A stretch of DNA of 38,419 bases from Prevotella sp. GTDB taxonomy: Bacteria; Bacteroidota; Bacteroidia; Bacteroidales; Bacteroidaceae. Location of the stretch: NCBI GenBank assembly GCA_017556145.1, contig JAFZCU010000211.1:1-38419 (forward strand). The letters run 5' to 3'. The notes under the pieces are model-generated. The model ran no database searches. It was not told where the DNA came from and saw only the letters and a list, made by a program, of their open reading frames with translations. Shown here in pieces: positions 4,176 through 38,419 of the stretch (position 1 is its first letter; every line of letters starts with the position of its first letter). A program made the position numbers and the translations under genes.

Positions 4176-4196
4176 GTGAAGAGTGAAAAGCGAAAA
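4176..4196. repeat. Three 7-base units (GTGAAAA family)
   Basis: Units GTGAAGA, GTGAAAA and GCGAAAA stand in tandem. The same family recurs inside the GH3 gene at 24640 and, as the other strand, upstream of the LacI gene at 33338. This short copy alone would be weak evidence. Confidence 0.45.
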
Positions 4197-4227
4197 AGGG
4201 GATGGCAATGGTGCCGGCCCCTTTTCG
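4191..4227. terminator. Hairpin terminator between convergent genes
   Basis: An interrupted hairpin has outer arms CGAAAA(A)GGGG and CCCCTTTTCG and an inner GGCA/TGCC stem with a four-base loop. It lies between the stop at 4164 and the convergent sirtuin stop at 4248. The A-rich left arm and T-rich right arm would let it act on both strands. A short heptad array (4176-4196) overlaps its left arm. Confidence 0.6.
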
Positions 4228-4247
4228 ATTATGTCAAACAATTAGAA

Positions 4248-4940
4248 TCACGGTTGCAATATCTGCAGGAGTTCCTTCATGCCCTCGGAAGCGCCTTTCT
4301 GAATCTGCTGGACGCGGCCACCGGCATTGACGGGGTTCGGGTCGATGAGATAGACAGGCACCTCGGGACGGGCATAGTGGAGAAGTCCTGCGGCGGGATA
4401 GACCACGAGAGACGTACCTATTATAATAAGGATGTCTGCCAGTGACACCTCCTCGGCGGCAATCGTAATATTGGGCACCGCCTCGCCGAAGAACACGATG
4501 TAGGGGCGCAGCAGTGAACCGTCACCAGCCTTCGTGCCAGGCTCAATCTCACAATTGTCGGGCGTGAGCTGCTGGATATAGCGGGGATCGTCGACATCGC
4601 GGCTGGAGCACACCTTCATCAACTCGCCATGCAAATGGATGACTCGCGAGGAGCCCGCCATTTCGTGGAGGTTGTCGACATTCTGGGTGACAACCGTCAC
4701 GTCATAGTTCTTCTCAAGCTCTGCCACGAGGCGATGGCCTTCGTTAGGCTGCACGTTCCAGCACTTCTTGCGGAGCATGTTATAGAAATTAGTCACAAGC
4801 GTGGGGTCAGCCAGCCAGCCCTCGTGGGTGGCGACTTTCTGCACGGGATAGTTCTCCCAAAGGCCATCGGCATCGCGGAAGGTCTTCAATCCGCTCTCCA
4901 CCGACATGCCGGCACCGGTTAATACTACTATCTTCTTCAT
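4248..4940 (-). CDS. NAD-dependent protein deacylase, SIR2 family
   Basis: This 230-residue sirtuin starts at MKKIVVLTGAGMSVESG. The open frame runs 15 codons further upstream, but that stretch overlaps the promoter. Visible motifs are the NAD-binding GAGMSVESGLKTFRDADGLW near residues 8-27, TQNVDNLHEMAG, the catalytic histidine in HLHGE, GTSLVVYPAAGLLHY, and IDPNP near the end. Sirtuins use NAD to remove acyl groups from lysines. The short, bacterial CobB-like length fits the deacetylase/desuccinylase class. The two CxxC pairs that bind zinc in most sirtuins are absent: only one cysteine remains after HLHGELMKV and one in DNCEIEP. From memory, several Bacteroidota sirtuins share this loss. 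It is divergent from the FKBP gene at 5095. Confidence 0.93.
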   Translation of the reverse strand: MKKIVVLTGAGMSVESGLKTFRDADGLWENYPVQKVATHEGWLADPTLVTNFYNMLRKKCWNVQPNEGHRLVAELEKNYDVTVVTQNVDNLHEMAGSSRVIHLHGELMKVCSSRDVDDPRYIQQLTPDNCEIEPGTKAGDGSLLRPYIVFFGEAVPNITIAAEEVSLADILIIIGTSLVVYPAAGLLHYARPEVPVYLIDPNPVNAGGRVQQIQKGASEGMKELLQILQP

Positions 4941-4962
4941 AAACAACATAAATAATTCCGTG

Positions 4963-4994
4963 CAAATATACGAATTTTTAGACAAAAGAACAAA
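4963..4994 (-). promoter_or_regulatory. Sirtuin promoter (-7 and -33)
   Basis: On the minus strand TATATTTG (4963-4970) matches TAnnTTTG, and TTTG (4991-4994) lies 20 bases further upstream, the usual Bacteroidota spacing. The -33 element falls inside the palindromic repeat 4975-5037. Confidence 0.65.
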
Positions 4995-5037
4995 AGAAAC
5001 AAAAAAAAATATGTTCTTATGTACTTATGTCTAAAAA
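4975..5037. repeat. Imperfect palindromic intergenic element, copy 1
   Basis: The ends TTTTTAGAC and GTCTAAAAA are perfect inverted repeats. Between them the left arm carries the 8-base repeat CAAAAGAA and the right arm GTTCTTAT/GTACTTAT. The arms match apart from A/T transversions at regular spacing. It sits exactly between two divergent -7 elements. A second copy lies at 12987-13055 in the same arrangement. Confidence 0.75.
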
Positions 5038-5051
5038 TTATTGTAACTTTG
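5018..5051 (+). promoter_or_regulatory. Promoter of the FKBP gene cluster
   Basis: TAACTTTG (5044-5051) matches TAnnTTTG. A TATG at 5018-5021 lies 22 bases upstream inside the palindromic element and may serve as a weak -33 site. The same TATG-22-TAnnTTTG layout recurs at 13032-13065. Confidence 0.6.
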
Positions 5052-5094
5052 CAGCCGATTTTCGAAAATTATACATTATTATTATAGAGAAAGA

Positions 5095-5700
5095 ATGGAT
5101 AAATTAAGTTATGCCTTAGGACTGGGCATTGGTCAGCAATTGTCGCAGATGGGTGCCAATGACATCAGTGCCGAGGATTTTGCACAGGCCATCAAGGATG
5201 TACTGGAGGGCAACGAGCTGAAGGTATCGCACCGTGAGGCCCAGGGCATCGTACAAGACTATTTCCAGAAGCAGGAGCAGAAACTCCAGGCCGAGCGCGC
5301 CGAAGCCGGCAAGGCCCATAAGGAGGCTGGTGAGAAGTATCTGGCCGAGAATGCCAAGAAGGACGGCGTCATCACCCTGCCCAGCGGCCTGCAGTATCAG
5401 GTGCTGAAAGAGGGCAATGGCAAAAAGCCGAGCGCCAAGGATACCGTGATGTGCCACTATGAAGGTTTTCTCATCGACGGTACGGTATTCGACAGCAGTA
5501 TCCAGCGTGGCGAGCCCGCCACCTTCCCCTTGCAGCAAGTGATTGCTGGTTGGACTGAAGGTCTGCAACTGATGCAGGAAGGTGCCAAATACCGCTTCTT
5601 CATTCCCTACCGCTTAGGTTATGGCGAGGGTGGTGCAGGCAATTCGATTCCGCCGTTTGCAGCGTTGATCTTCGACGTGGAGCTGATACAGGTCGTTTAG
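5095..5700 (+). CDS. FKBP-type peptidyl-prolyl isomerase, cytoplasmic (FklB-like)
   Basis: This 201-residue protein lacks a signal peptide (MDKLSYALGLGIGQQLSQMG), so it should act in the cytoplasm. Residues about 1-85 form the helical FKBP N-terminal dimerisation domain of the Mip/FklB type. A charged linker (KQEQKLQAERAEAGKAHKEA) leads to the catalytic FKBP domain at about 105-201. The expected active-site residues are visible: Y in CHYEGF, FD in TVFDSS, VI and W in QVIAGW, Y in LGYGEG, and F in FAALIFDVEL. It catalyses cis-trans isomerisation of Xaa-Pro bonds during folding. Two further FKBP genes follow, the first after a 109-base gap made almost entirely of heptad repeats. Confidence 0.93.
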   Translation: MDKLSYALGLGIGQQLSQMGANDISAEDFAQAIKDVLEGNELKVSHREAQGIVQDYFQKQEQKLQAERAEAGKAHKEAGEKYLAENAKKDGVITLPSGLQYQVLKEGNGKKPSAKDTVMCHYEGFLIDGTVFDSSIQRGEPATFPLQQVIAGWTEGLQLMQEGAKYRFFIPYRLGYGEGGAGNSIPPFAALIFDVELIQVV

Positions 5701-5798
5701 AGTTTAGAGTTGAGAGTTGAGAGTTTAGAGTTTAGAGTTTATAGTTTAAAGTTTAGAGTTTAAAGTTTAAAGTTGAGAGTTTAGAGTTTATAGTTTAA
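5701..5798. repeat. Array of fourteen 7-base units (AGTTTAG family)
   Basis: Fourteen uninterrupted heptads, variants of AGTT(T/G)A(G/A/T), fill the gap between two FKBP genes and start directly after the stop codon TAG. Only 11 bases separate the array from the next ATG. The AGTTGAG variant is the reverse complement of CTCAACT, the unit found inside the SusR-like gene at 14247. A weaker relative lies at 9930. Confidence 0.92.
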
Positions 5799-5809
5799 AG
5801 ATAAAGATT

Positions 5810-6682
5810 ATGAAGAAATTAATGTTTGTAGCCGTTATGGCTATTTCAGCAGCTCTTTTCACAGGCTGCGGCAATTCTACTCCGAAGGCCAACCTGAAGA
5901 GTGATGTAGACACACTGAGCTATGTATTCGGTATGGCTCGTACACAGGGTCTGAAGGAATATCTTTCTCAGACTGGTGTTGACACTACCTACATGGCTGA
6001 TTTCATCAAGGGTCTGAACGAGGGTGCTAACTCTGGCGACGACAAGAAGAAGGCTGCCTACTATGCTGGTATCCAGATTGGTCAGCAGATTGCCAACCAG
6101 TGGGTAAGCGGCATGAACCGCGAGCTCTTCGGTGATGACTCAACCAAGACCATCTCTCTGAAGAACCTGATGGCCGGTTTCGTAAGCGGTATCAAGAACA
6201 ATGGTCTGATGACCCTCGACTCTGCCCAGGTGCTGGCTCAGTCGATGATGCAGTCGATCAAGGCCAAGGAGCTGGAGAAATCGTATGGTCCCAACAAGGA
6301 GGCTGGCGAGAAGTTCCTCGCTGCCAACAAGACCAAGGAAGGCGTGAAGACCTTGGAGAGCGGTGTGCAGTATAAGGTGATCAAGGAAGGCAATGGCCCC
6401 ATCCCCGCTGACACTTCACTCGTGAAGGTACACTACGAGGGTAAGACCGTTGAGGGTAAGGTGTTCGACAGCAGCTACGAGCGTGGCGAGCCCATCAACC
6501 TGCGTTGTAACCAGACCATCAAGGGTTGGACCGACGCTATGGTTCACATGCCTGCAGGCTCTATCTGGGAAGTCTACATTCCTCAGGATCTCGCTTATGG
6601 CGAGCGTGAGCAGGGCGACATTAAGCCGTTCTCTGCCCTGATCTTCAAGATTGAACTGATTGAGGTTAATCCTAAGAAGTAA
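5810..6682 (+). CDS. FKBP-type peptidyl-prolyl isomerase lipoprotein
   Basis: This 290-residue protein has a lipoprotein signal peptide ending in the lipobox LFTGC (Cys20), so it is anchored on a membrane, probably facing the periplasm. Residues about 30-180 match the helical FKBP N-terminal domain (DTLSYVFGMARTQGLKEYL, and later YYAGIQIGQQIANQW). The FKBP catalytic domain covers about 195-287, with HYEGKTVEGKVFDSS, IKGW, LAYGERE and FSALIFKIELIEV. One active-site position reads TIKGW instead of the usual VIxGW. Its stop codon overlaps the next start (TAATG), which suggests translational coupling. It probably helps fold secreted or outer-membrane proteins. Confidence 0.93.
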   Translation: MKKLMFVAVMAISAALFTGCGNSTPKANLKSDVDTLSYVFGMARTQGLKEYLSQTGVDTTYMADFIKGLNEGANSGDDKKKAAYYAGIQIGQQIANQWVSGMNRELFGDDSTKTISLKNLMAGFVSGIKNNGLMTLDSAQVLAQSMMQSIKAKELEKSYGPNKEAGEKFLAANKTKEGVKTLESGVQYKVIKEGNGPIPADTSLVKVHYEGKTVEGKVFDSSYERGEPINLRCNQTIKGWTDAMVHMPAGSIWEVYIPQDLAYGEREQGDIKPFSALIFKIELIEVNPKK

Positions 6683-7593: not shown

Positions 7594-7598
7594 TAAGC

Positions 7599-7628
7599 AA
7601 GTGTGTCACAAAAGTGGCACACTTTTTT
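7599..7628 (+). terminator. Rho-independent terminator after the FKBP cluster
   Basis: An 11-base stem, AAGTGTGTCAC pairing with GTGGCACACTT through one G-U pair, closes a four-A loop and is followed by a run of six T. It begins six bases after the FKBP stop codon. Confidence 0.9.
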
Positions 7629-8167: not shown

Positions 8168-8179
8168 ACGGCACCCGTT

Positions 8180-9931
8180 ATGACAGACAGATTCGACTTG
8201 CAGGCCCATCTTCGCAATGTCTATGCAAAGTATCCGGCCGCACAGCGACAGCCCATCATCGGCATCACCGGCAACTATGAGGACCTGACCTGCAAACTGG
8301 GTCAGGGCTATTACAAATCGGTGGTGGCGGCGGGAGGCGTGCCCATCGTCATCCCCCCAGTGGCCGATACTAACACCCTCGTCAATACCCTCGACCATAT
8401 CGATGCCCTCATCCTCAGCGGCGGTGGCGACTTCAACCCCCTCTATGGTGGTGAGGAACCCTCGAACCGGCTGCACGATATCAACTCAGAGCGCGACCTA
8501 CCAGAGCTGATGCTCACGCAGATGGCCTACAACCGTCAGATGCCCATCCTCGGCATCTGTCGTGGTATCCAGACCCTGGCGATGGCCCTTGGCGGCCGCG
8601 TGTGGCAGGATATCAATGAGAAGACCGTCACAAAGCATTCGCAGCAGGCGGCCCGCAGCGAGGTGACACATTCGGTGAAGATCGATGAGAACTCACTCCT
8701 CCATCAGATGTACCACGAGGACAAGATGTTTGTCAACAGCTTCCACCATCAGGCCGTGCGTGAGACTGGGCCAAAATTCCGCGTCACTGCCAAGTCGCCT
8801 GATAATATCATCGAAGCGATGGAGAGCAACGAGTACAAGCCCATCGTCGGCGTACAGTGGCATCCGGAATGCCTGGAAGAGGGTATGCCTCTGTTCCACT
8901 GGCTCATTCAGGAGGCACTGGCCTATCATCATGCCCACGAGGTGCACAACCGCGTGCTGACACTCGACACCCATTGCGACACGCCCATGTTCTTCCCGCA
9001 GGGCATCCATTTCGACCAGCGAGATTCCAAGATACGCGTTGACCTGCATAAGATGAACGAGGGCCGTCAGGATGCCACCATCATGGTGGCCTATCTGCCC
9101 CAGCCAAAAATCGGCGAAACCTTCTCGTCATTGGTCGACTTCGACGTAGCCGGTCCCACGGAATATGCCGACCTCATCTTCGATAAAATCGAGGAAATTG
9201 TCAGTCAGAACAAGACCTACTTGAGCATCGCCCGTACCCCTGGCGACCTGTATGAAGACAAACGCAACCGTCGGAAGTCGATCATGTTCGGCATTGAGAA
9301 CGGTCTGGCCCTCAACGGTCAGTTGCAGAACCTGCAGCATTTCGCCCAGCGCGGCGTTGTGTATATGACGCTCTGCCACAATGGCGACAACGATATCTGC
9401 GACTCTGCCCGTGGCTGCAACACTCACGGGGGCGTGAGCCGTTTCGGCGAACAAGTCATCCGCGAGATGAACCGTCTGGGCATCATGGTCGACCTGAGCC
9501 ACGCTTCGGAAAAGAGCTTCTACGATGCCCTCGACATCAGCAGCACGCCTATTGTGTGCAGCCACTCCAGCTGCAAAGCCCTCTGCGACCATCCGCGCAA
9601 CCTCACCGACGACCAGATGCGCGCCCTGGCCTCGAAAGGCGGTGTGGCACAGACCACACTCTATCCGGGCTTCCTGAAGAGCGACGGGGAGGCCACCATC
9701 ATGGATGCCATCGCCCATCTGGAGCACGCCATCAAAATCATGGGCATCGACCATGTGGGCCTCGGCACCGATTTCGACGGTGACGGAGGCGTGACTGGTC
9801 TCGCTGACAGCAGCGAACTCATCAACTTCACCCGTCAGCTACTGGCCCGCCGCTACAGCGAGCGCGACATCCAGAAGATCTGGGGCGGGAATTTCCTTCG
9901 TGTCATGTCATTGGTGCAGAAGAAGGTTTAG
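8180..9931 (+). CDS. Fusion of class I amidotransferase-like gamma-glutamyl hydrolase (C26) and membrane dipeptidase (M19)
   Basis: The 583-residue protein has two enzyme halves. Residues about 18-250 resemble peptidase C26/PuuD-type gamma-glutamyl hydrolases, with the nucleophile Cys127 in GICRG and the His228-Pro-Glu230 pair in QWHPE. Residues about 255-580 are a renal-dipeptidase-type M19 domain, with the zinc motif HxD at His265 and Asp267 (DTHCDTP), FGIENG, VDLSHASEKSFYDAL, CSHSSCKAL, and GLGTDFDGDGG. No signal peptide is visible, so it should be cytoplasmic despite the family name. C26 enzymes cleave gamma-glutamyl bonds and M19 enzymes cleave dipeptides such as Cys-Gly, so one chain could degrade glutathione-like or other gamma-glutamyl peptides in two steps. 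That pathway is an inference. It follows the Lrp-like gene by 12 bases. Confidence 0.9.
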   Translation: MTDRFDLQAHLRNVYAKYPAAQRQPIIGITGNYEDLTCKLGQGYYKSVVAAGGVPIVIPPVADTNTLVNTLDHIDALILSGGGDFNPLYGGEEPSNRLHDINSERDLPELMLTQMAYNRQMPILGICRGIQTLAMALGGRVWQDINEKTVTKHSQQAARSEVTHSVKIDENSLLHQMYHEDKMFVNSFHHQAVRETGPKFRVTAKSPDNIIEAMESNEYKPIVGVQWHPECLEEGMPLFHWLIQEALAYHHAHEVHNRVLTLDTHCDTPMFFPQGIHFDQRDSKIRVDLHKMNEGRQDATIMVAYLPQPKIGETFSSLVDFDVAGPTEYADLIFDKIEEIVSQNKTYLSIARTPGDLYEDKRNRRKSIMFGIENGLALNGQLQNLQHFAQRGVVYMTLCHNGDNDICDSARGCNTHGGVSRFGEQVIREMNRLGIMVDLSHASEKSFYDALDISSTPIVCSHSSCKALCDHPRNLTDDQMRALASKGGVAQTTLYPGFLKSDGEATIMDAIAHLEHAIKIMGIDHVGLGTDFDGDGGVTGLADSSELINFTRQLLARRYSERDIQKIWGGNFLRVMSLVQKKV

Positions 9932-9957
9932 TTTACAGTTTATAGTTTACAGTTTAC
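9930..9957. repeat. Four 7-base units (AGTTTAC family)
   Basis: AGTTTAC, AGTTTAT, AGTTTAC and AGTTTAC stand in tandem, beginning within the stop codon of the fusion gene and ending two bases before the next ATG. The unit is close to that of the 5701 array. Confidence 0.75.
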
Positions 9958-9959
9958 AG

Positions 9960-11012
9960 ATGAATACTAAAAATATTAATAAGGTGCCTGCAGGCGTATT
10001 CTACTTACTCCTACCCTCCTTACTCCTTCTCTCCTTTTCTTCCTGCGGACTTCGTAAACAGACTGCTACAGAGACAGAGACCATAACAGCCGTAGGCCCT
10101 GCCTTCAATGCCGACAGCGCCTATCTGTTCTGTCAGCAGCAGTGTGATTTCGGTCCACGGACCATGAACAGCAAAGCCCACGACCTCTGTGAACAGTGGA
10201 TTATCAGCAAGTTCAAGGGCTACGGCATGACCGTCATTCCCCAGAAGTGCGAACTGAAAGGCTACGACGGCACAACCCTGCACAGCACAAACATCATAGC
10301 CAGCTACAAGCCTGAACTCACAGACCGTATTCTGCTCTGTGCCCACTGGGATTGTCGCCCCTGGGCAGATAACGACCCTGATGAGGCCAACTGGAAAAAA
10401 CCTGTTCTCGCAGCCAATGATGCCGCCTCCGGTGTCGCCGTCATGCTTGAAATAGCCCGGCTCCTGTCTTCTGACGCCCGAGAGCTGACGCCCGACTCCT
10501 GTCTTCTGTCTCCTTCTCTCGGCGTAGATTTTATCTGTTTCGATGCAGAAGACTACGGTTTTCCCCAATGGGAAACTATCGACGACCCTGGCAACACCTG
10601 GGCCTTAGGCTCCAAATACTGGGCCGAAAATCCCCATACCTCAGGCTACAAAGCCCGCTACGGCATCTTGCTCGACATGGTGGGCGGTCAAGGGGCGCAG
10701 TTCTATCAGGAGATCATGTCGAAGCACTATGCCAAGCATATTGTCGACAAGGTTTGGCGAGCCGCCTCTGTGGTGGGCTACGGCAGCAGTTTCCCCATGG
10801 CGGAGGGCGGTGCCATCACCGACGATCACATCCCGGTAAACACCACGGCTAATATCCCTTGCATCGACATTATCCCCCACTACCCCAACTGCGAACAGAG
10901 CAGCTTCGGTCCCACTTGGCACACCGTGAATGACGATATGGCTCACCTCGACAAGAACACGCTCCTTGCCGTTGGCCAGACTATCATCCAGGTGTTGTTC
11001 TCTGAAAAATAA
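9960..11012 (+). CDS. M28-family glutaminyl-peptide cyclotransferase-like lipoprotein
   Basis: ATG 9960 gives 350 residues; the frame opens earlier, but the extension overlaps the previous gene and the heptad array. The signal peptide has a strongly hydrophobic core and ends in the lipobox SFSSC (Cys29). The M28 fold is clear: LLCAHWDCRPWAD (His129), AANDAASGVAVML (Asp154), FDAEDYG (Glu197), ITDDHIPV (His290) and TWHTVNDD (His321). By analogy with human glutaminyl cyclase, Asp154, Glu197 and His321 would be the zinc ligands. Such enzymes convert N-terminal glutamine to pyroglutamate on secreted proteins, a common processing step in Bacteroidota. Aminopeptidase activity is the alternative. An in-frame segment at 10461-10516 is a heptad repeat. 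The gene ends 8 bases before the convergent pullulanase. Confidence 0.87.
   Translation: MNTKNINKVPAGVFYLLLPSLLLLSFSSCGLRKQTATETETITAVGPAFNADSAYLFCQQQCDFGPRTMNSKAHDLCEQWIISKFKGYGMTVIPQKCELKGYDGTTLHSTNIIASYKPELTDRILLCAHWDCRPWADNDPDEANWKKPVLAANDAASGVAVMLEIARLLSSDARELTPDSCLLSPSLGVDFICFDAEDYGFPQWETIDDPGNTWALGSKYWAENPHTSGYKARYGILLDMVGGQGAQFYQEIMSKHYAKHIVDKVWRAASVVGYGSSFPMAEGGAITDDHIPVNTTANIPCIDIIPHYPNCEQSSFGPTWHTVNDDMAHLDKNTLLAVGQTIIQVLFSEK
10461..10516. repeat. Heptad array inside the M28 gene (TGTCTTC/CTCCTGT family)
   Basis: Eight 7-base units, some degenerate, include CTCCTGT twice and CTTCTGA/CTTCTGT, plus CGCCCGA twice. They encode LLSSDARELTPDSCLLSPS, between the first metal-site helix and the next core strand. 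The reverse complement matches the GH3 array at 24464. Confidence 0.7.
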
Positions 11013-17900: not shown

Positions 17901-18165
17901 GGTCTGCAGCGACATGTATATCCAGGACGGCAGCTACCTGCGCCTGAAGAATATCACGCTTGGCTATACCTTGCCACGCAACCTCACCAAGAAGATCAAC
18001 ATCAGCCGCCTGCGCATCTATGCCCGTGCTGAGAATCTCTTCACATGGACTAAGTACTGGGGCTTCGACCCGGAAATCGGTTCCGGCTCCACCTCTCTCG
18101 GTGTAGACTATGGAGTATATCCACAGGCTCGTACCTACACCCTCGGATTTAACATCTCATTATAA
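14977..18165 (+). CDS. SusC-like TonB-dependent outer-membrane transporter (beta-glucan locus)
   Basis: The 1062-residue protein has a signal peptide (MKKSRYLWLLLALMVSMVTRA) and a carboxypeptidase-regulatory-like domain at about 24-95 (GILGTVTDEYGEPIIGASV, SITDFDGNFNVKV, ISYIGYVTQE). The SusC signature TLQDVVVIGYGVQKK comes next, then a TonB plug at about 110-220 with IRIRGIGTINNSEPLYIIDG, and a long beta-barrel ending in YTLGFNISL. It imports oligosaccharides across the outer membrane with energy from TonB. SusD follows after 30 bases, then a binding lipoprotein, GH16 and GH3, so the cargo is most likely beta-1,3-glucan fragments. The untranslated leader is about 50 bases. Confidence 0.95.
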   Translation: MKKSRYLWLLLALMVSMVTRAQGILGTVTDEYGEPIIGASVVEKGNPQNGSITDFDGNFNVKVNEGTTIVISYIGYVTQELSATRGMKVVLKEDAQTLQDVVVIGYGVQKKSVVTASIAKVSAEDLDGKTRLRAEDALKGMAAGVNVTSASGQPGSKSMIRIRGIGTINNSEPLYIIDGMPTDQNGMESVNPGDIESIEVLKDAASGAIYGARAANGVILVTTKKGKMGKASINYNFSYGWQSAWKKRDVTGATDYAILQNERAVQNGSAPLYADPYNLTDANGNKITGFGTDWQDLLFNDNAPIVQHDVSISGASEKLNYYLSLGYFTQDGIVGGNYGQSNYDRLTIRSNNQFNLFDDSKERNFLNKLDLGANLSYMRVHNTGIDANSTWGSPLGSALYLAPILPVTLNKDGIGGDMIDRYSAYNLYTDANGNPYTIPNFVGSYQEQNNPIAMMQGNPNKNWSHKFMPKFSIDLQLFDELKYHFTYSAELSFWGYDAATLQKYYLSGNNNADHTSATSYKGNNTTWQIENTLTYDKIFGKHTIGIVLGQSALKFKGDELGGSHWNLVNTEKPSINYTTGGDLELTTDADGKVTGAKSLVSAWGGPYTEHRLSSLFARFSYNYDEKYMIQATIRRDGSSRFGSNNKYGTFPSASIGWNIMNEEFMKDTNDWLTNLKLRASWGKNGNDNIGDFAYTTLTALGASSNYYYGRTATMTYGSKANRLANEDLKWEESEQTDIGLDFGFWNNKLTFSVDYYIKNTNGMIIEMPIASYVGEERPLANVGDMKNSGWEFELGYKWNVADAHFAIKGNASYLKNELKNLGNDTGFLNYGISQFSDGGTRAENGQPFPFFYGYKTDGIIQNAAEAAAYNAKYGTNKQPGDFRFVDTNDDGKITSDDRTNIGNGVPDWTFGLNFDAEWKGFDLGIFFQGVSGADVFDATYRQDIASGNYPTWVLQRWTGEGTSNTVPTLGNSENWVCSDMYIQDGSYLRLKNITLGYTLPRNLTKKINISRLRIYARAENLFTWTKYWGFDPEIGSGSTSLGVDYGVYPQARTYTLGFNISL

Positions 18166-18196
18166 TTGATAATTGAAAATTGATAATTGATAATTA
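18162..18196. repeat. Five 7-base units (ATAATTG family) running into the susD start codon
   Basis: ATAATTG, ATAATTG, AAAATTG, ATAATTG and ATAATTA are in tandem. They begin at the SusC stop and run directly into ATG 18196, leaving no room for a separate ribosome binding site. The same family lies before the SusE-like gene (38271) and inside the GH97 gene (26874). Confidence 0.88.
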
Positions 18197-19772: not shown

Positions 19773-22211
19773 ATGAAGACGAAAAAATATAATAAGGTAG
19801 TGGCAGGAGTATCCTCTTACCTCTTACTTCTTACATCTTACCTCTTTTTTGCCTGCTCACCTGATGAATTCAGTGGTGCAGACCCCAATGGACTCCCAAC
19901 AGTTAGCGGTGTTGACTTCAACATCAGCGTGGATCAGGAGACCAACCAGATGATTGCTACCTATACGCCACAGGCTGGTACATACCCCGTGTGGATCCTC
20001 AATGGCAACACATACTCTACCCTACAGGAGGTAGGTTATCAGAACCCCGAGGCAGGTACCTATACCATCGATCTGAAGTTAGGTAACCGCAATGGTTTCA
20101 GCCAGGGTGTGGTCAGCAAGACATTCACCTTCAACGAGACCAAGATCGACTATAGTGCTGACTTCCGTAAGATTACCGGTAAGGAGTGGCGCTTCGCCAA
20201 CAAGGAAGTAGGTCACCTGGGTTGTGGCCCTGCAGGAACTACAGGTACAGAATGGTGGTCGGCTCAGCCCGATGACAAGAAAGACTTCGGTATGTACGAT
20301 GACCGCATTACCTTCACAGCCGACACCCGCAAGGGCGGCACCTTTACCTACAATGCAGGTGAGGACGGCAAGACTTATGTGAACACCGGTACAACCAAGT
20401 GGGGTTCGGAAGCCGCCGACTTCGACGCAACCATCGGCAATCAGACCTCCAGCTGGAGCTTCGAGGTTTACGATTGGGAGGATGCTGACGGTAATGTAAC
20501 CAAGCAGACCTACATCCAGTTGGCTGCCAATACTGCATTCCCATATATCTCAAGCGATGCGCAATACGAAAATCCAAAGTTCCGCATCGAAACGCTTACT
20601 GCCAAGAAGTTGGTCTTGGTGTATGAAACCCCTGATCGCAGCATCGCATGGCACTTTATCTTCACCAGCGAGGAAGCAGAGAAGGAATGGGCCGGTTTTG
20701 ATGCCAACAGCGACTTCAACATGTGGAAGGGTATCACCCCAACTATGTCGTTCTACTATAATCCTGATCCAGGTTGGGGTAACGACCAGACTGCAGCCTT
20801 CGAGGCCCTCTTCAAGGGTGGCAACAACGACTACAGCGTAACTATTCCTCAGGAGTGTTTCTCTGAGTGGCAGGCACAGGTTCACTTCCACACCAATCTG
20901 ACAACTTCTGCTGCTGTCAACTATGACTTCTCTTGTATCTTCAATAGTGATCGCGACATCGAGGGTGTCGTCGTGAAGCTGACTAATGAGGATGACTCAG
21001 AGGCAATCATCGACGAACACAATATCAAGTTGAAGGCTGGTGAGGACTATATTTTCTGGGTCAGCAACGTACCTGGTAAGGACCTGAATCCCGTGAAGTT
21101 AGTGATGGACTTCGGTCACGCTACGGGCGAAACCAATATCAGCATTACCGACATCGTACTGAAGGATCACGCCAATGACGATGGCACAGTTCCACCAAAT
21201 GACAATCCCGATAATCCTGATGCACCTAAGATGGACTGGGACTACGAGAGTAGCGCTAACCTTTGGAAGGCTGTTGATGACGGCACACTGTTCGACACAT
21301 TCGGCTATTGGTTTGCTAACGATGGCTGGAGTCAGATTCCTAATGATGAGGCTACACATAGCGGCGACGCCTACGAGATTACGCTTCCTGAGGGGATGGG
21401 TGGTAGCCAATGGCAGGGTCAGTTCCACATCGACACCAAGCTTACCGCCAGTGCATCGAAGGCATATAACTTCTACCTCGTCATGGAGGCAGATAACGAT
21501 TGCTCAGGTGTAACCATCAAGCTTACCGACTCAGGTGACACGAACTTCTTCTGCGAGGGACGCCACGACGTGAAGGCCGACGAGCCATTCATCTTCAAAG
21601 TGGAAGGTGCAACGCTCAAGGAAGGTAAGGATGCCGAGTCCATCCGTCTGTTCTTCGACTTTGGCGGCTCACCAGCTGGTACTCACATTAAGATCAGTAA
21701 GATTTACTTCGAGGAGGCAGTCGTGCTGAACTACGATGATGCCAGCAACCTGTGGAAGGGTGTTGACGATGGCACTGTAGGCAGTTCGTTCGGTTACTGG
21801 TTTGCTAACGACAGCTGGAGCGAAATCGCCCACAACGAGTGCAAACACAGTGGTGACACCTATGAGATATTGCTTCCAGAGGGAATGGGTGGTAGCCAGT
21901 GGCAGGGTCAGTTCCACATCGACACCCAGCTCACTGCATCTGCATCAAAGCAGTATCACTTCCAACTGGTTATTGAGGCTGATGCCGACTGCCCAGGTGT
22001 GACTATCAAGCTCACCGACGCTGGCGATACCAACTTCTTCTGCGAGGGTCGTCATGACATCAAGGCCGACGAGCCATACGTTTACACGCTGAAGAATGCG
22101 ACGCTGAAAGAAGGAACCGACGCATCTGCCATCCGCTTGTTCTTCGACTTCGGTGGCTCACCTGCCGGTGCTAACGTCAAGATCAGCAAAATCATCTTCA
22201 AAGAAGCATAA
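19773..22211 (+). CDS. Modular surface glycan-binding lipoprotein with three CBM4-like repeats
   Basis: The 812-residue lipoprotein has its lipobox at FFAC (Cys28). Residues about 40-120 look like a PKD/Ig-type domain, and about 125-305 form a beta-rich domain of unknown type (ITGKEWRFANKEVGHLGCGP). Three related carbohydrate-binding modules follow at about 310-480, 487-645 and 653-812. The last two are nearly copies of each other, both with EGMGGSQWQGQFHIDT and DTNFFCEGRHD, and resemble CBM4-type beta-sandwiches. It takes the place of SusE/SusF in this locus and should hold polymer at the cell surface. The hydrophobic core of its signal peptide (SYLLLLTSYLFF) is encoded by heptad repeats. 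Its stop overlaps the GH16 start (TAATG). Confidence 0.88.
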   Translation: MKTKKYNKVVAGVSSYLLLLTSYLFFACSPDEFSGADPNGLPTVSGVDFNISVDQETNQMIATYTPQAGTYPVWILNGNTYSTLQEVGYQNPEAGTYTIDLKLGNRNGFSQGVVSKTFTFNETKIDYSADFRKITGKEWRFANKEVGHLGCGPAGTTGTEWWSAQPDDKKDFGMYDDRITFTADTRKGGTFTYNAGEDGKTYVNTGTTKWGSEAADFDATIGNQTSSWSFEVYDWEDADGNVTKQTYIQLAANTAFPYISSDAQYENPKFRIETLTAKKLVLVYETPDRSIAWHFIFTSEEAEKEWAGFDANSDFNMWKGITPTMSFYYNPDPGWGNDQTAAFEALFKGGNNDYSVTIPQECFSEWQAQVHFHTNLTTSAAVNYDFSCIFNSDRDIEGVVVKLTNEDDSEAIIDEHNIKLKAGEDYIFWVSNVPGKDLNPVKLVMDFGHATGETNISITDIVLKDHANDDGTVPPNDNPDNPDAPKMDWDYESSANLWKAVDDGTLFDTFGYWFANDGWSQIPNDEATHSGDAYEITLPEGMGGSQWQGQFHIDTKLTASASKAYNFYLVMEADNDCSGVTIKLTDSGDTNFFCEGRHDVKADEPFIFKVEGATLKEGKDAESIRLFFDFGGSPAGTHIKISKIYFEEAVVLNYDDASNLWKGVDDGTVGSSFGYWFANDSWSEIAHNECKHSGDTYEILLPEGMGGSQWQGQFHIDTQLTASASKQYHFQLVIEADADCPGVTIKLTDAGDTNFFCEGRHDIKADEPYVYTLKNATLKEGTDASAIRLFFDFGGSPAGANVKISKIIFKEA
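19814..19848. repeat. Five 7-base units encoding a signal-peptide core
   Basis: CTCTTAC, CTCTTAC, TTCTTAC, ATCTTAC and CTCTTTT are in tandem. They encode SSYLLLLTSYLFF, the hydrophobic core just before the lipobox cysteine, and the peptide itself has a 7-residue period. Confidence 0.85.
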
Positions 22212-23323: not shown

Positions 23324-23349
23324 AAGTTGTCTTAGTTGTCAAAGTTGTC
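23323..23349. repeat. Three 9-base units between GH16 and GH3
   Basis: AAAGTTGTC, TTAGTTGTC and AAAGTTGTC are in tandem directly after the GH16 stop codon, 13 bases before the GH3 start. Confidence 0.7.
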
Positions 23350-23362
23350 GTTAATTAAGAAT

Positions 23363-25645
23363 ATGAGAAAGTTTATAATTTTCATTTGTTGTATATCATT
23401 CAGCCCTATGCTTGCCCAACAGTTGCCAAAGTATCTTGATGAAAACATCCCTGTAGAGCAGCGTATCGACGATGCCCTGAGCCGGATGACGCTCGATGAG
23501 AAGATTGCGGTGATCCATGCGCAGTCGAAGTTCTCGAGTCCTGGCGTGAAGCGCCTTGGCTTCCCCGACCTCTGGACGGACGATGGTCCTCACGGTGTGC
23601 GTCCTGACGTGCTCTGGGACGAGTGGGTACAGGCTGGACAGACCAATGATTCATGTGTGGCCTTCCCTGCCCTCACCTGTCTGGCAGCCACTTGGAATCC
23701 CGAGATGGCATCACTCTACGGCACATCGTTGGCAGAAGAGGCACTCTACCGCAACAAAAGCGTGATCCTCGGTCCTGGTGTGAACATCAACCGTACCCCG
23801 CTGGGAGGCCGTAACTTTGAGTACATGGGCGAAGACCCTTACCTGGCCTCACAGATGGTGGTGCCCTACGTTCGGGGACTGCAGTCGAAGGGTGTGGCGT
23901 CGTGTGTGAAGCACTATGCCCTCAACAACGATGAGGAGTACCGTCATCAGGTGAATGTCATCGTCAGCGACCGTGCCCTCCACGAAATCTACCTGCCAGC
24001 CTTCCGTGCTGCTGTGCAGGAAGGTGGTGCCTGGGCCATCATGGGTGCCTACAACCTCTACAAAGACCAACACAATTGTCATAATAACATCCTCCTGAAC
24101 AAGATCCTGAAGCATGACTGGGGCTTCGATGGCGTGGTCATCAGCGACTGGGGCGGCTGTCACAACACTGAGGAAGCTGTCACCAACGGCCTCGACCTCG
24201 AGTTCGGCACATGGACCGATGGTCTGACGATGGGACGTACCAATGCCTACGACAGCTATCACATGGCGGAGGCCTATAAACGCCTCATCAAAGAAGGGAA
24301 GTTCACCACGAAGGAACTGGATGAAAAAGTGCGCCGTGTATTGCGTCTGTTCTATCGCACCACAATGAACAAGAACAAACCCTATGGATTCCTTTGTTCC
24401 GAAGCCCACTACGCTGCCGCACGGAAGATTGCACAGGAAGGCATTGTGTTGTTGAAAAATGAAGGAGTCAGGAGACAGGAGTCAGAAGACAGGAGTCAGA
24501 AGGCTGCGCCTTTGCTGCCGCTGGATAAGTCAAAAGCACAGCGCATCCTTGTGGTGGGCGAGAACGCCATCAAGATGATGACCGTAGGTGGTGGATCATC
24601 TTCCCTCAAGGTCCAGCACGAGATCCTCCCCCTCGACGGGTTAAGTGAAAAGTTAAAAGTGAATAGTGAAAAATTTGCTACCGCTATCGATTATGCCCGT
24701 GGCTACGTGGGCGACACCATCCAGAGCTTCGACGGTGTGACTGTAGGCCGCAGCCTCCGCGAGAGCCGCTCACAGGCCGAACTCACTGCCGAGGCAGTAG
24801 AGAAGGCCAAGCAGGCCGATGTCGTCATCTTCTTCGGTGGCCTGAACAAGAGCGACTTCCAGGACTGCGAAGGTCATGACCGTAAGCAGTACGACCTGCC
24901 CTATGGTCAGAACGAACTCATCGAGGCACTCGTGGCTGCGAATCCCCGTCTGGTATATGTCAATATCAGCGGCAATGCCGTCGCCATGCCGTGGGCCGAT
25001 AAGGTGCCGGCCATCTTACAGGGGTGGTTCCTCGGTTCAGAGGCCGGCAATGCCATTGCCGATGTCCTCTTCGGCGATGCCAATCCCTCCGGAAAGCTGC
25101 CCTACACCTGGTACCAGCAGCTCGACGACTGTGGGGCGCACGCTTTGAAGGCTTTCCCTGGCACCTGGCGCGACGACTACAAAATCATCGACGAGGAATA
25201 TAAGGAGGACATCTATGTCGGTTACCGTTGGGCTGACAAACAGAAAATCCGTCCGCTCTTTGCCTTTGGCCATGGCCTCAGCTACACCACCTTTAAAATA
25301 GGCAAGGCCACTGCCGACAAGCAAGAACTGACGACAGATGACAAGATTACCTTCACTGTACCCATTACGAATACTGGCACTGTGGCTGGTGCTGAAACCA
25401 TCCAACTCTATGTCAACGATCTTCAGAGTTCAGTTGAGCGTCCTATCAAGGAACTCAAAGCTTTCCGCAAGGTCTTCCTTGAGCCGGGCGAGACCCAGCA
25501 GGTATCGCTTACTCTTGACAAGAGCGCCCTTAGCTTCTACGACGATCAGACAGGCCAGTGGACGGCTGAGCCTGGCGAATTCAAGGCCCTCATAGGAACA
25601 TCATCAAAAAACATCGTTAGTGATTATAAGTTTAGATTAAAGTAA
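23363..25645 (+). CDS. GH3 beta-glucosidase, secreted
   Basis: ATG 23363 gives 760 residues; an upstream in-frame TTG lies inside a 9-base repeat and is less likely. The signal peptide is MRKFIIFICCISFSPMLAQ. The N-terminal GH3 barrel shows WTDDGPHGVR, GPGVNINRTPLGGRNFEYMGEDP (split here by residue limits into its two halves GPGVNINRTPLGG and RNFEYMGEDP), CVKHYALN and the nucleophile Asp262 in VVISDWGG. The second domain has IFFGGLNKSDFQDCEGHDR, and a fibronectin III-like domain closes the protein (about 665-755). It should release glucose from beta-glucan oligosaccharides in the periplasm. Two low-complexity insertions, GVRRQESEDRSQ and LSEKLKVNSEKFA, are encoded by heptad arrays near the junction of the two catalytic domains. 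Confidence 0.94.
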   Translation: MRKFIIFICCISFSPMLAQQLPKYLDENIPVEQRIDDALSRMTLDEKIAVIHAQSKFSSPGVKRLGFPDLWTDDGPHGVRPDVLWDEWVQAGQTNDSCVAFPALTCLAATWNPEMASLYGTSLAEEALYRNKSVILGPGVNINRTPLGGRNFEYMGEDPYLASQMVVPYVRGLQSKGVASCVKHYALNNDEEYRHQVNVIVSDRALHEIYLPAFRAAVQEGGAWAIMGAYNLYKDQHNCHNNILLNKILKHDWGFDGVVISDWGGCHNTEEAVTNGLDLEFGTWTDGLTMGRTNAYDSYHMAEAYKRLIKEGKFTTKELDEKVRRVLRLFYRTTMNKNKPYGFLCSEAHYAAARKIAQEGIVLLKNEGVRRQESEDRSQKAAPLLPLDKSKAQRILVVGENAIKMMTVGGGSSSLKVQHEILPLDGLSEKLKVNSEKFATAIDYARGYVGDTIQSFDGVTVGRSLRESRSQAELTAEAVEKAKQADVVIFFGGLNKSDFQDCEGHDRKQYDLPYGQNELIEALVAANPRLVYVNISGNAVAMPWADKVPAILQGWFLGSEAGNAIADVLFGDANPSGKLPYTWYQQLDDCGAHALKAFPGTWRDDYKIIDEEYKEDIYVGYRWADKQKIRPLFAFGHGLSYTTFKIGKATADKQELTTDDKITFTVPITNTGTVAGAETIQLYVNDLQSSVERPIKELKAFRKVFLEPGETQQVSLTLDKSALSFYDDQTGQWTAEPGEFKALIGTSSKNIVSDYKFRLK
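24464..24505. repeat. Heptad array inside the GH3 gene (GGAGTCA family)
   Basis: GGAGTCA occurs three times, alternating with GGAGACA and GAAGACA, followed by a diverged unit. It encodes GVRRQESEDRSQK, a hydrophilic insertion between the two catalytic domains. The reverse complement resembles the M28 array at 10461. Confidence 0.85.
24640..24674. repeat. Second heptad array inside the GH3 gene (GTGAAAA family)
   Basis: GTTAAGT, GAAAAGT, TAAAAGT, GAATAGT and GAAAAAT are in tandem and encode LSEKLKVNSEKF. A pure GAAAAGT array would contain a TGA stop; the base changes here remove it. Confidence 0.8.
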
Positions 25646-25773: not shown

Positions 25774-28050
<2,277 letters not shown>

Positions 28051-28053
28051 TTA

Positions 28054-28081
28054 ATTATGCATTGTACATTGTGCATTATTT
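28054..28081. repeat. Heptad array between GH77 and GH97 (ATTGTGC family)
   Basis: ATTATGC, ATTGTAC, ATTGTGC and ATTATTT are in tandem. They cover part of the 37-base gap and reach into the GH77 stop codon. The complement matches the array in the GH97 signal peptide. Confidence 0.75.
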
Positions 28082-33337: not shown

Positions 33338-33365
33338 ACTTTTCACTATTCAGTATTCACTTTTC
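33338..33365. repeat. Heptad array in the starch control region
   Basis: ACTTTTC, ACTATTC, AGTATTC and ACTTTTC are in tandem. The complement (GAAAAGT) matches the array inside GH3 at 24640. It lies just upstream of the LacI -7 element, where the -33 element would be. Confidence 0.8.
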
Positions 33366-33389
33366 ATCATCAAAGTTGACATATATCAA

Positions 33390-36636: not shown

Positions 36637-36664
36637 GACAACAATCATAAAAGGATATTAAGTC

Positions 36665-38272
36665 ATGAAAAAGATATATAAGAATTTGATTCCCGCAGCA
36701 GCCTTCTTGCTGACACTCGGTGTGACATCTTGTACAGGTGACTTGGATGTTGAGCCACTGGATCCCAATATGTCGACCGAAGTGAGCCCTGAAGGTCTTT
36801 TCAACAAGTGCTATGCAAATATTGCGATGGCGGGCAATGGCGGTGCCAATGGTGACTGTGACATCGACGGTATCGATGGCGGTACATCAGGATACATCCG
36901 TCAGATGTGGAACGCTAACGAGCTTCCTACCGATGAAGCTATCAACGGATGGGGTGACGATGGTATTGAGCAGTCATGCTTTAACACCTACGACGAGTCT
37001 CACCCGATGCTCAACGGTTATTTTGCACGTCTCACCACAGGCATTACCTACTGCAACCAGTATCTGACTGTTGCTGCAGACCATGATGCAACGATGACGG
37101 CAGAAGTACGCTTTATCCGTGCACTGAACTACTATTTGCTGATGGATGCCTTCGGACGTGTACCTTTCGCTGAGGAATTGGGCGATCCCGTTATCTACAG
37201 CCGTCAGGAAATCTTCAATTGGCTCGAGAACGAACTTATCACCAATGTAGAGCCCAATTTGTCAGAGGCTAAACCCAAGAAATCGTCCGATGCCGGCTAT
37301 GGTCGTGTAGACAAGGCAGCCGCATGGCTCCTGCTCTCACGCCTCTATCTGAATGCAGAGGTCTATACTGGCACTGCCCAGTGGGCGAAAGCTGCTGAAT
37401 ATGCCAAGAAGGTAATGGACTCCCCCTATAAGCTGAACACTAACAGTGTCAATGGTTGGAGCGCCTACCAGATGCTCTTCATGGGTGACAATGGTGAGAC
37501 TGATGCTGCCTACGAGGCCATCTTCCCCATTCTGCAGGATGGTCTGACAACCACCTCATGGGGTACCACACAGTTCCTCTGCGCTGGTAGCTTCGACAGT
37601 GACATGCATGCCAACCCCAATGATCCTGATGCCACAAATGGACTCTCAGGTCAGGTATGGGGTGGTAATCGTACCCGTCCCAGTCTGGTTCAGAAGTTCT
37701 TCCCGAACCTGGATGCGCCTCAGGTGCCTTCTTACGACATGACACTTGCCGCTGGTGACGACCGTGCTATCTTCGATGGTGTTGGCAGGGAAATCAACAA
37801 CCTCGACCGCGCTACCTTCAAGAACGGTTATGCCGTAGCCAAGTTTATTAATTTCAAAACTGACGGTTCCAGCGGTCACGATGCCACATTCATGGATGCT
37901 GACTTCTTCCTGTTCCGCGCAGCTGAAGCCTACCTGACCTATGCAGAGGCTCAGGCTCGCATGAACGGTGGTGCCACCAATGCAGAGGGCGCCAATGCCA
38001 TCAATGCACTGCGCACACGTGCCCATGCTTCTACTAAGGCCAACTACGCCCTCGACGAGATCCTCGACGAGTGGTCACGTGAGTTCTACTTCGAAGGCCG
38101 TCGCCGTGTCGATCTTATCCGCTTCAACAAGTTTGGTGGAAACACTGACTATATCTGGCAGTGGAAAGGCGGCACCTATAATGGCCGTAACTTTGATGCT
38201 TATAAGAACATCTATGCTATTCCGGCTTCTCAGTTGTCAACCTATGGCAATGAACAGAATCCTGGCTATTAA
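36665..38272 (+). CDS. susD: SusD-like surface glycan-binding lipoprotein (starch locus)
   Basis: The 535-residue lipoprotein has its lipobox at GVTSC (Cys23). The SusD core is clear: LTTGITYCNQYLTVAADHDA, TAEVRFIRALNYYLLMDAFGRVPF, the C-terminal FLFRAAEAYLTYAEAQARMN, and EWSREFYFEGRRRVDLIRFN. The inserted NGGANGDCDIDGIDGG segment near 58-73 is similar to the region before the starch-binding arc in known starch SusD proteins, from memory. It starts 28 bases after SusC. It should bind malto-oligosaccharides at the surface and close over SusC. Confidence 0.94.
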   Translation: MKKIYKNLIPAAAFLLTLGVTSCTGDLDVEPLDPNMSTEVSPEGLFNKCYANIAMAGNGGANGDCDIDGIDGGTSGYIRQMWNANELPTDEAINGWGDDGIEQSCFNTYDESHPMLNGYFARLTTGITYCNQYLTVAADHDATMTAEVRFIRALNYYLLMDAFGRVPFAEELGDPVIYSRQEIFNWLENELITNVEPNLSEAKPKKSSDAGYGRVDKAAAWLLLSRLYLNAEVYTGTAQWAKAAEYAKKVMDSPYKLNTNSVNGWSAYQMLFMGDNGETDAAYEAIFPILQDGLTTTSWGTTQFLCAGSFDSDMHANPNDPDATNGLSGQVWGGNRTRPSLVQKFFPNLDAPQVPSYDMTLAAGDDRAIFDGVGREINNLDRATFKNGYAVAKFINFKTDGSSGHDATFMDADFFLFRAAEAYLTYAEAQARMNGGATNAEGANAINALRTRAHASTKANYALDEILDEWSREFYFEGRRRVDLIRFNKFGGNTDYIWQWKGGTYNGRNFDAYKNIYAIPASQLSTYGNEQNPGY

Positions 38273-38305
38273 TTGAGAATTGATAATTGAAAATTGATAA
38301 TTGAA
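38271..38305. repeat. Five 7-base units (AATTGAT family) before the susE-like start
   Basis: AATTGAG, AATTGAT, AATTGAA, AATTGAT and AATTGAA are in tandem, followed by AATTATG whose last three bases are the start codon at 38310. The array begins in the SusD stop codon. The layout is the same as at 18162. Confidence 0.9.
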
Positions 38306-38309
38306 AATT

Positions 38310-38419
38310 ATGAAGACAATATTCAAATCCACAATACTGTTGGCTGTCGCATGTCTGTCGCTTTTCACCTCGTGTGCCGATGACAATGACTCCAACCCCG
38401 TACTGGGAAAGCCGACAAC
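38310..38419 (+). CDS. SusE-like outer-membrane lipoprotein, cut by the window end
   Basis: Only the first 36 codons are present. They encode a lipoprotein signal peptide (MKTIFKSTILLAVACLSLFT) with lipobox FTSC (Cys22), followed by ADDNDSNPVLGKPD. The SCxDDxDSNPxL pattern after the lipobox is typical of SusE-type starch-binding proteins. The position right after SusD supports this. The rest of the gene, and any SusF or surface amylase after it, lie outside the window. Confidence 0.75.
   Translation, partial: MKTIFKSTILLAVACLSLFTSCADDNDSNPVLGKPT

What the first reader, a model, noticed from the sequence alone, without database searches (positions are those of the whole stretch)
4176..38312. 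Length-locked 7-base tandem arrays of several unrelated sequences, between and inside genes
At least 14 sites hold tandem 7-base units: 4176, 5701, 9930, 10461, 14247, 18162, 19814, 24464, 24640, 26874, 27972, 28054, 33338 and 38271. The units fall into at least six families (for example AGTTTAG, AATTGAT, GGAGTCA, GTGAAAA, CAATGCA, CTCTTAC). They share no sequence, only the period, and about half the arrays have five units (35 bases). Five families occur at two or three distant sites, often once inside a gene and once between genes, so they spread or are copied. A process that fixes unit length but not sequence is not explained by ordinary slippage. The closest known parallel I can name is the heptanucleotide STRR repeats of filamentous cyanobacteria.
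Basis: partly seen in the sequence, partly recalled or inferred. Interest (0 to 1): 0.82.

Follow-up and report, generated by a model that had tools for sequence, protein, structure and literature searches.

The report
Repeat arms of selfish gene cassettes
The short 7-base repeats scattered through this bacterium are, at least in part, the matching end pieces of tiny movable gene cassettes, which gives a concrete source for a repeat pattern long noticed in many bacteria.

Summary
The arrays are real: 7 is the only basic repeat period enriched in the window, and 10 of the 11 clear arrays hold 4.1-5.6 units.

The main result is a source. Genes of PF05635 (23S rRNA intervening-sequence protein, IVP/S23p; a pentameric four-helix bundle related to retroelement Avd) sit between inverted repeat arrays. 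51 of 62 scored IVP genes have strongly inverted flanks, against 0 of 133 and 1 of 26 control genes. In the one subfamily examined, arm family follows IVP subfamily from Prevotella to cyanobacteria, and arm units match the dispersed arrays of the same genome. A ~467-bp cassette here is missing from its site in 21 relatives whose two flanking genes are joined. Gene-less versions with the same ends exist; the window holds a comparable inverted pair at 27972-28077. The other arrays look like solo arms, often filling the gap from stop codon to next start.

I read the arrays as arms of IVP elements, non-ribosomal cousins of rRNA intervening sequences. How they move, and whether the pentamer reads the repeats, is inferred. 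Two array-bearing relatives show no IVP gene.

The parts
5695..5797 (+). Solo array, 14.7 units AGTTTAG-type, from the stop codon of ORF 5095-5700 to 12 nt before ATG 5810
   Evidence: nearest relative G031 lacks it
9930..9959 (+). Solo array, 4.3 units AGTTTAC-type, filling stop (9931) to ATG (9960)
   Evidence: same unit family as the arms of the IVP cassette on contig C62
14247..14281 (+). Array of 5 CTCAACT units read in frame as coiled coil inside ORF 13116-14747
   Evidence: no net length change against two orthologues
18162..18195 (+). Solo array ATAATTG-type filling stop (18165) to ATG (18196)
19813..19846 (+). Array CCTCTTA-type in the signal-peptide region of ORF 19773-22211
   Evidence: orthologue L088 has a different array there
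24463..24502 (+). Array AGGAGTC-type in frame inside ORF 23336-25645
   Evidence: same unit family as arms of the IVP cassette on contig C133
24643..24672 (+). Array AAGTGAA-type in the same ORF
26876..26908 (+). Array AATTGAT-type inside minus-strand ORF 25774-28038
27972..28077 (-). Gene-less inverted pair: arm 27972-28003 and inverted arm 28054-28077; one arm encodes part of the signal peptide of ORF 25774-28038
   Evidence: inverted score 20 against 9 direct; 25-bp stem with one mismatch, z -3.3, 1 of 200 shuffles as good
33338..33366 (+). Weak solo array ACTATTC-type between divergent genes
38271..38309 (+). Solo array AATTGAA-type filling stop (38272) to ATG (38310)
4176..4196 (+).
   Evidence: lag score 8; not in the TRF list
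10461..10511 (+).
   Evidence: lag score 6; not in the TRF list

Best explanation
The heptamer arrays are the arms, and mostly the solo arms, of small selfish elements built round a PF05635 (IVP/S23p) gene. A full element is about 470 bp: an array of about 4-5 units of 7 nt (8 in sister species), the IVP gene, and the same array inverted. Gene-less versions keep the two inverted arms round 39-73 nt; solo arms of about 31 nt are the commonest form. SHOWN: inverted arms round IVP genes in several phyla; match of arm units to dispersed arrays of the same genome; in one subfamily, arm family following IVP subfamily across phyla; a cassette absent from its site in relatives; insertion right after a stop codon. 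INFERRED: the arms pair in RNA as in ribosomal intervening sequences; the pentameric IVP (Avd-related) binds about five repeat units, one per subunit, which would set both unit spacing and array length and leave spacer bases free; mobility goes through RNA with a reverse transcriptase supplied in trans; solo arms are truncated or decayed copies, tolerated between genes and, when open in frame, as signal peptides, coiled coils or loops.
For: Own IVP genes on C62, C133 and C124 are each flanked by inverted arrays; the C62 and C133 arms are the unit families of window arrays 5695/9930 and 24463. Inverted-flank score >=16: 29 of 30 Prevotella IVP loci taken by HMM rank, 16 of 18 loci from array-rich genomes, 6 of 14 plasmid loci; total 51 of 62. 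Controls: 0 of 133 own genes of 240-660 nt, 1 of 26 neighbour genes. Plasmids: arrays on both sides in 9 of 14; either sign in 11 of 14. The right flank of the same locus is the best match of 18 for 14 of 18. Arm units lie within one substitution of 17.5% of dispersed arrays in their own genome and 2.3% in others; 0 of 10000 label permutations. Own C133 IVP: its five closest non-Prevotella relatives (60-63% identity) all bear TCAGGAG arms like it. Empty sites at the C62 element in 21 relatives, one read (G258). Own array pairs within 700 nt: 9 inverted, 1 direct. Length mode 27-33 nt. IVP element folds with an arm stem of about 37 bp, z -6.4; four gene-less pairs z -8.1 to -4.5. 18 of 19 genomes picked only for (TCAGGAG)4 have PF05635 over cut-off; 0 of 14 control genomes.
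Against: G018 (98 AACTNTM hits) and G010 (18) show no PF05635 match, so the gene is not needed at present. PF05635 is common anyway: 259 of 299 in the genus, 45 of 61 in the phylum sample, so co-occurrence is weak evidence; in that sample all 8 array-positive genomes have it, about p 0.07. Most own arrays have no inverted partner: 18 of 101 are in inverted pairs. L316 and L323 arms score as direct, not inverted; L332 likewise, L341 has no arms. Mismatched flank pairs among the 30 genus loci also score high (mean 14.2, max 82). TCAGGAG arms also occur at a divergent IVP (L177, 30% identity). No target-site duplication seen. At the C62 site at least seven relatives have long gaps whose content I did not read. 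Unit binding and movement are untested.
Confidence: 0.62

Rival explanations
1. Tandem slippage whose favoured step is 7 nt in some genomes (the proposal that 7 nt is the stretch held by the DNA polymerase); IVP genes merely land in or near such arrays.
For: Heptamers are reported as the most abundant long simple repeats in many genomes (Mrazek 2007, seen only as cited in PMC4679880 and PMC4692102). G031 has a single AGTTTAA at the site of the 5695 array, as a slippage seed would look. Very long arrays exist (202 nt). Periods 8 and 9 also occur.
Against: Length mode at 4-4.5 units with fewer at 3; inverted pairs 9 to 1; inverted arms round IVP genes against control genes; unit grammar beyond composition; the same unit in many phyla. 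Landing inside an array would give direct, not inverted, flanks.
Confidence: 0.17
2. Functional sites: arrays are translation or mRNA-stability elements at gene junctions, bound by a host protein and kept by selection, as proposed for TAACTGA repeats.
For: 61 of 101 arrays intergenic; purine strand in sense 35 to 10 in codirectional gaps; 18 of 45 such arrays reach from within 9 nt of the stop to within 7 nt of the next start. MacGregor 2015 reports the same placement near start codons.
Against: Arrays differ or are absent at orthologous sites; family size varies from 0 to 436 hits among 299 genomes of one genus; the placement also fits insertion at the least harmful sites.
Confidence: 0.1
3. 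A DNA transposon system whose transposase acts in trans on heptamer-array ends; the IVP gene is a passenger.
For: Inverted ends, gene-less derivatives and empty sites are what transposons and their miniature forms show.
Against: No transposase gene was seen inside the arms of the IVP loci printed; no target-site duplication at the one empty site read; arm identity follows IVP subfamily.
Confidence: 0.11

Closest known systems
Intervening sequences (IVS) of 23S rRNA genes with an S23p/IVP reading frame (Coxiella, Leptospira and others; passages of PMC4990558 seen)
   Same: S23p/IVP reading frame, total size of 428-444 nt against about 470 here, terminal inverted repeats forming a stem (28 bp there), sporadic distribution
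   Different: The elements seen here lie between protein genes and their arms are 7-8-nt tandem arrays; RNase III excision not tested
Heptanucleotide STRR of cyanobacteria, GGGANTN/GGGGAYT repeats of Xanthomonas and Nostoc (PMC4692102), TAACTGA repeats (PMC4679880)
   Same: Dispersed heptamer arrays, mostly intergenic, near gene ends or starts; a preferred array size of four units in the Xanthomonas/Nostoc paper; variable and fixed positions in the unit
   Different: Those papers, in the sections and passages seen, name no encoding element; here they are tied to IVP cassettes
Small dispersed repeats embedded in heptamer arrays of Nostoc (Elhai 2008; recalled, not seen)
   Same: Short hairpin elements associated with heptamer arrays
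   Different: Described, as recalled, as 21-27-nt elements of unknown driver
Avd of diversity-generating retroelements
   Same: IVP and Avd are homologous (passages of PMC10053308; PF22296 bAvd also matches the C62 protein)
   Different: No reverse transcriptase or template/variable repeat seen in the short IVP flanks printed; not searched for systematically
MITEs
   Same: Short gene-less elements sharing ends with a larger element; fixed length classes
   Different: Ends are tandem arrays; no target-site duplication established

Membership tests
23S rRNA intervening sequence | S23p/IVP (PF05635) reading frame inside | tested here: met
   PF05635 E 1e-34 for the C62 protein; own genome 5 matches, of which 3 over the cut-off
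23S rRNA intervening sequence | Terminal inverted repeats forming a long stem | tested here: met
   (about 37 bp, z -6.4)
23S rRNA intervening sequence | Located in a helix of an rRNA gene | tested here: not met
   own C62 element lies between two protein-coding ORFs; of 14 plasmid loci the 12 with annotation in the stretch show protein genes as neighbours
23S rRNA intervening sequence | Excision of the RNA by RNase III | not testable with these tools
   needs RNA work
Heptanucleotide repeat (STRR-like) families | Dispersed, mostly intergenic tandem heptamers of a few sequence families | tested here: met
Slippage-type simple sequence repeats | Copy number falling steadily from short to long | tested here: not met
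   7-nt length bins 2/3/4/5/6: 28/34/63/10/2; shuffled sequence gives 12 in bin 2 only
Slippage-type simple sequence repeats | Change in steps of one unit between close strains | not testable with these tools
   no strain pairs held; nearest relatives are about 85-87% identical
MITE / transposon | Inverted ends shared with a larger element | tested here: met
   C62 IVP element and gene-less pairs share the left end TAGTTTATAGTTTAAAG...
MITE / transposon | Target-site duplication | tested here: inconclusive
   one empty site read, junction diverged, no duplication evident
Diversity-generating retroelement | Adjacent reverse transcriptase and template/variable repeats | not tested
   only short flanks read; RVT_1 is present once in the own genome, distance to IVP genes not examined, different contig (C35) from C62, C133, C124

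The most novel reading that the evidence does not exclude
A bacterial family of selfish elements whose ends are binding arrays for their own ring protein: each IVP pentamer recognises about five copies of a 7-8-nt unit (fixed core plus free spacer), and this protein-repeat pairing, spread by RNA-mediated copying, is the common source of the unexplained excess of heptanucleotide repeats in bacteria from Bacteroidota to Cyanobacteria.
Probability: 0.27. Interest if true: 0.92.

Novelty: new variant of a known kind. Interest (0 to 1): 0.76.

Why it matters
An excess of heptanucleotide repeats in bacterial genomes has been noted since at least 2007 with only a polymerase-slippage guess behind it (as cited in PMC4679880 and PMC4692102), and the S23p/IVP family is described as having no known function (passage of PMC4990558). 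Tying the two together makes both testable: a named protein with a solved pentamer (2gsc) and a named repeat. It would recast scattered 'simple repeats' as pieces of mobile elements, explain why one heptamer family occurs in several phyla, and warn annotators that array-encoded stretches (signal peptides, coiled coils, linkers) can be element-derived.

Tried and rejected
Length-locked, sequence-free repeats: rejected by the unit grammar (Prevotella, 55 distinct classes: 5.14 bits against a letter-permuted mean of 4.55, maximum of 30 nulls 4.755; other phyla, 58 classes: 4.765 against 4.005, maximum 4.379) and by out-of-sample scoring (43 classes, 1 of 1000 permutations as good; classes absent from Prevotella 24 of 1000). 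Exact class sharing between Prevotella and other phyla was not beyond chance (7 against 4.6, 316 of 2000), so the grammar, not exact sharing, carries that point. A thought that the unit mimics an anticodon loop was dropped without a test.

IVP presence as a predictor of arrays inside the genus: weak. Of the 20 IVP-less genomes that one search lists (20 more were not listed), 5 have AACTNTM hits (G010 18, G018 98, G066 2, G135 3, G176 2). The reversed-pattern control is invalid for AACTCTC, which reads as its own rotation backwards.

Reverse transcriptase as driver: RVT_1 is found in 6 of 8 genomes tried, with no relation to array load (G228 and G018, both with arrays, have none). IVP in viral contigs: 7 stretches matched a peptide pattern, none a relative. 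Rfam: nothing in the window.

Weak points of my own scripts: loci of the 30 genus IVP hits on the minus strand were not turned, so only 17 of 30 gave open proteins for the HMM and the minus-strand rows are mistranslated (short alignments); they do not bear on the inverted-flank scores, which are strand-symmetric. One search kept 32 Prevotella loci and 50 in all. The purine-strand orientation rests on the EM register. The gene caller is my own.

Papers: no print link between PF05635 genes and heptamer arrays in searches; of the four papers listed I saw passages of two and the listing only of two. Most subscription journals are not held.
Full report
OBSERVATION. TRF finds eleven clear period-7 arrays in the window (score 37-150). 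A lag self-match count gives 10 period-7 arrays at score >=12 against 0.0 in shuffled sequence; among periods 4-21 only the multiples 14 and 21 also rise. The window is contig C144 of a 3.46-Mb, 242-contig, 82.7% complete genome. In 613,590 bases of it there are 101 period-7 arrays, 14 of period 8 and 18 of period 9; the part picked without regard to arrays (20 contigs, 194,156 bases) has 16, 4 and 5. Two complete relatives of the genus have 0 and 1 period-7 arrays in 200 kb each, and one family ranges from 0 to 436 hits among 299 genomes of the genus, 156 having any. So the trait is patchy and turns over fast.

NOT SEQUENCE-FREE. By record titles these are mostly cyanobacteria, with Tenacibaculum, Chitinophagaceae, Alistipes, Prevotella, Granulosicoccus, Thiorhodococcus, Geobacteraceae, Verrucomicrobiales, Lentisphaeria, Nitrospirae, Acidobacteriota, Desulfotruncus and Pelotomaculum among them. 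A second window family (AACTNTM) is found in 9 of 20 of the genomes behind such loci. Distinct unit classes share a register better than letter-permuted classes in Prevotella and in other phyla, and the Prevotella register scores cyanobacterial, Tenacibaculum and Alistipes classes better than permuted ones (1 of 1000; 24 of 1000 when classes shared with Prevotella are left out).

WHERE THE ARRAYS SIT. With a simple codon-usage gene caller, 61 of 101 arrays are intergenic, 36 coding, 4 mixed; random 35-mers are 9.5% intergenic. In 45 codirectional gaps the purine-rich strand is sense 35 times and antisense 10, and 18 of 45 arrays reach from within 9 nt of the upstream stop to within 7 nt of the next start. 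In the window, 9930-9959, 18162-18195 and 38271-38309 end exactly at an ATG. In genes, arrays lie in compatible places, such as signal peptides (19813, 27972) and a coiled coil (14247). At five sites aligned with relatives the arrays are absent or replaced by other sequence, twice by another heptamer family (9930 in G031, 19813 in G013).

INVERTED PAIRS AND A GENE. Of own array pairs of related units within 700 nt, 9 are inverted and 1 direct. Eight inverted pairs enclose 39-138 nt; one encloses 409 nt holding an open reading frame. Several of the short ones and the long one share the left end TAGTTTATAGTTTAAAGTTTATAGTTTATAG followed by TGAT. The enclosed protein is PF05635, 23S_rRNA_IVP (E 1e-34), with a weaker bAvd match; by sequence its solved relative is 2gsc (E 9e-21, one entry with five chains), described as a toroidal homopentamer of four-helix bundles (passages of PMC4990558). 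PF05635 and Avd of diversity-generating retroelements are reported homologous (passages of PMC10053308).

IS IT GENERAL? Eight PF05635-type genes outside the 30 genus loci in sequence then held all had period-7 arrays within 400 nt on both sides; one of them (L317) I had fetched knowing of the array. Twelve more were then taken from HMM lists without looking at arrays, some in array-rich genomes: inverted arms are visible in 10 of 12 and score >=16 in 11 of 12. Over all scored loci, inverted-flank score >=16 holds for 16 of 18 in array-rich genomes, 29 of 30 top-ranked IVP genes of the genus and 6 of 14 plasmid copies: 51 of 62. Controls: 0 of 133 own genes of 240-660 nt and 1 of 26 neighbouring genes. 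On plasmids (13 of the 14 named by organism as cyanobacteria, Azospirillum or Gemmatirosa carry 'four helix bundle', 'S23 ribosomal' or hypothetical products or no annotation) 9 of 14 have arrays on both sides and 11 of 14 show either sign; arms that overlap the gene end lower the flank score (L337, L340), L339 has one side only, L341 none, L332 is direct. Exceptions in the first set: L316 and L323 score as direct.

UNIT LENGTH IS A LINEAGE TRAIT. The arms of the 30 genus IVP loci are themselves tandem arrays, best at period 8 in 21, 7 in 4, 9 in 3, 10 in 1 and none in 1, often with an RGTT core and variable spacer bases.

ARMS BELONG TO THEIR IVP. Among 18 loci the best inverted match of a left flank is the right flank of the same locus in 14. 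IVP genes at one conserved site (L318 own, L319, L322, L320) carry arms of one family in three species and of another (AATTAGG) in the fourth, both arms changed together. IVP identity and arm similarity correlate (Mantel r 0.23, 32 Prevotella loci; 0.17, 50 loci; 2 of 2000 permutations each), chiefly above 60% identity. The own C133 IVP, with TCAGGAG arms, has five closest non-Prevotella relatives (L325, L340, L226, L337, L316; 60-63%), all with TCAGGAG arms; its Prevotella relatives (66-74%) have GGAGTTAA/GAAGTTAA-type arms of 8-10 nt. So within one subfamily the core stays and the spacing shifts. L177 (TCAGGAG arm, 30% identity) is an exception, and L333 and L335 have partial matches.

ARMS MATCH THE DISPERSED ARRAYS. 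Arm units of nine IVPs lie within one substitution of 17.5% of the dispersed arrays of their own genome and 2.3% of those of five other genomes; 0 of 10000 label permutations reach this. Seven of nine are highest at home, own C124 is second, and G327 matches nothing anywhere. Own loci were partly chosen for the AGTTTAG family, which inflates one of the nine.

PRESENCE AND ABSENCE. The G258 junction was read: AAATAGT GAAA AAAATGG against own AATAGT [element] AATATGG. At least seven others (G203, G097, G177, G288, G249, G074, G252) have gaps some 400 nt or more longer than an empty site; their content was not read, and G097 has no PF05635 match while the two matches of G177 lie on other contigs, so some are something else.

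LENGTH AND STEM. Array lengths peak at 27-33 nt, with a second class of 83-103 nt. The C62 element folds with an arm stem of about 37 bp (z -6.4); four gene-less pairs give z -8.1, -4.5, -5.2, -5.2. The window's own inverted pair gives 25 bp with one mismatch, z -3.3. The Coxiella ribosomal IVS is 428-444 nt with a 28-bp stem and is excised by RNase III (passages of PMC4990558).

MECHANISM. Shown: inverted repeat arms as the ends of IVP cassettes; arm-array match; one polymorphic cassette; fixed size. Inferred, in falling confidence: solo arrays are remnants or truncated copies of such elements; arms pair in RNA; the pentamer reads about five units, one per subunit, as the TRAP ring reads its repeats (recalled analogy), which would explain fixed spacing, four to five units, conserved core and free spacer positions; movement is RNA-mediated with a reverse transcriptase in trans, suggested only by the Avd kinship.

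AGAINST. G018 and G010 have arrays and no PF05635 match; most own arrays have no partner (18 of 101 in inverted pairs); PF05635 is frequent in the phylum (45 of 61), so co-occurrence (18 of 19; 8 of 8) weighs little; no target duplication.

KNOWN OR NEW. Heptamer excess, STRR, GGGANTN and TAACTGA repeats are known; ribosomal IVS with S23p are known. I found no paper tying PF05635 genes to heptamer arrays. It works like an IVS but does not meet the rRNA-location feature, so I file it as a new variant of a known kind.

Noticed in passing
L332, L333, L336: IVP cassettes sit between CRISPR genes on cyanobacterial plasmids (between cas6 and cas4 twice, between cas10 and a cmr3-family gene once).
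   Followed up: no
L226:3560-4200: A Scytonema IVP gene is interrupted by what looks like a gene-less TCAGGAG-armed inverted element: nesting of the two forms.
   Followed up: partly
L036:458-519, L036:13100-13151, L049:3850-3896: Period-9/18 arrays (TCTGAGTAT-like) in the same genome, a different repeat class from the heptamers.
   Followed up: no
window 14247-14281 and L087: A heptamer array in a coiled coil with no net length change against orthologues; G018 has a second stretch of the same family elsewhere in the same coil.
   Followed up: partly
G097 contig C53 and G177 contig C49, at the site orthologous to own C62: Insert-sized gaps (467 and 1108 nt) at the same intergenic site with no PF05635 match there: possibly a second kind of insert at one site.
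   Followed up: no
L327: The Nitrospirae IVP cassette starts just after what looks like a tRNA gene by eye (not checked with a tRNA finder).
   Followed up: no
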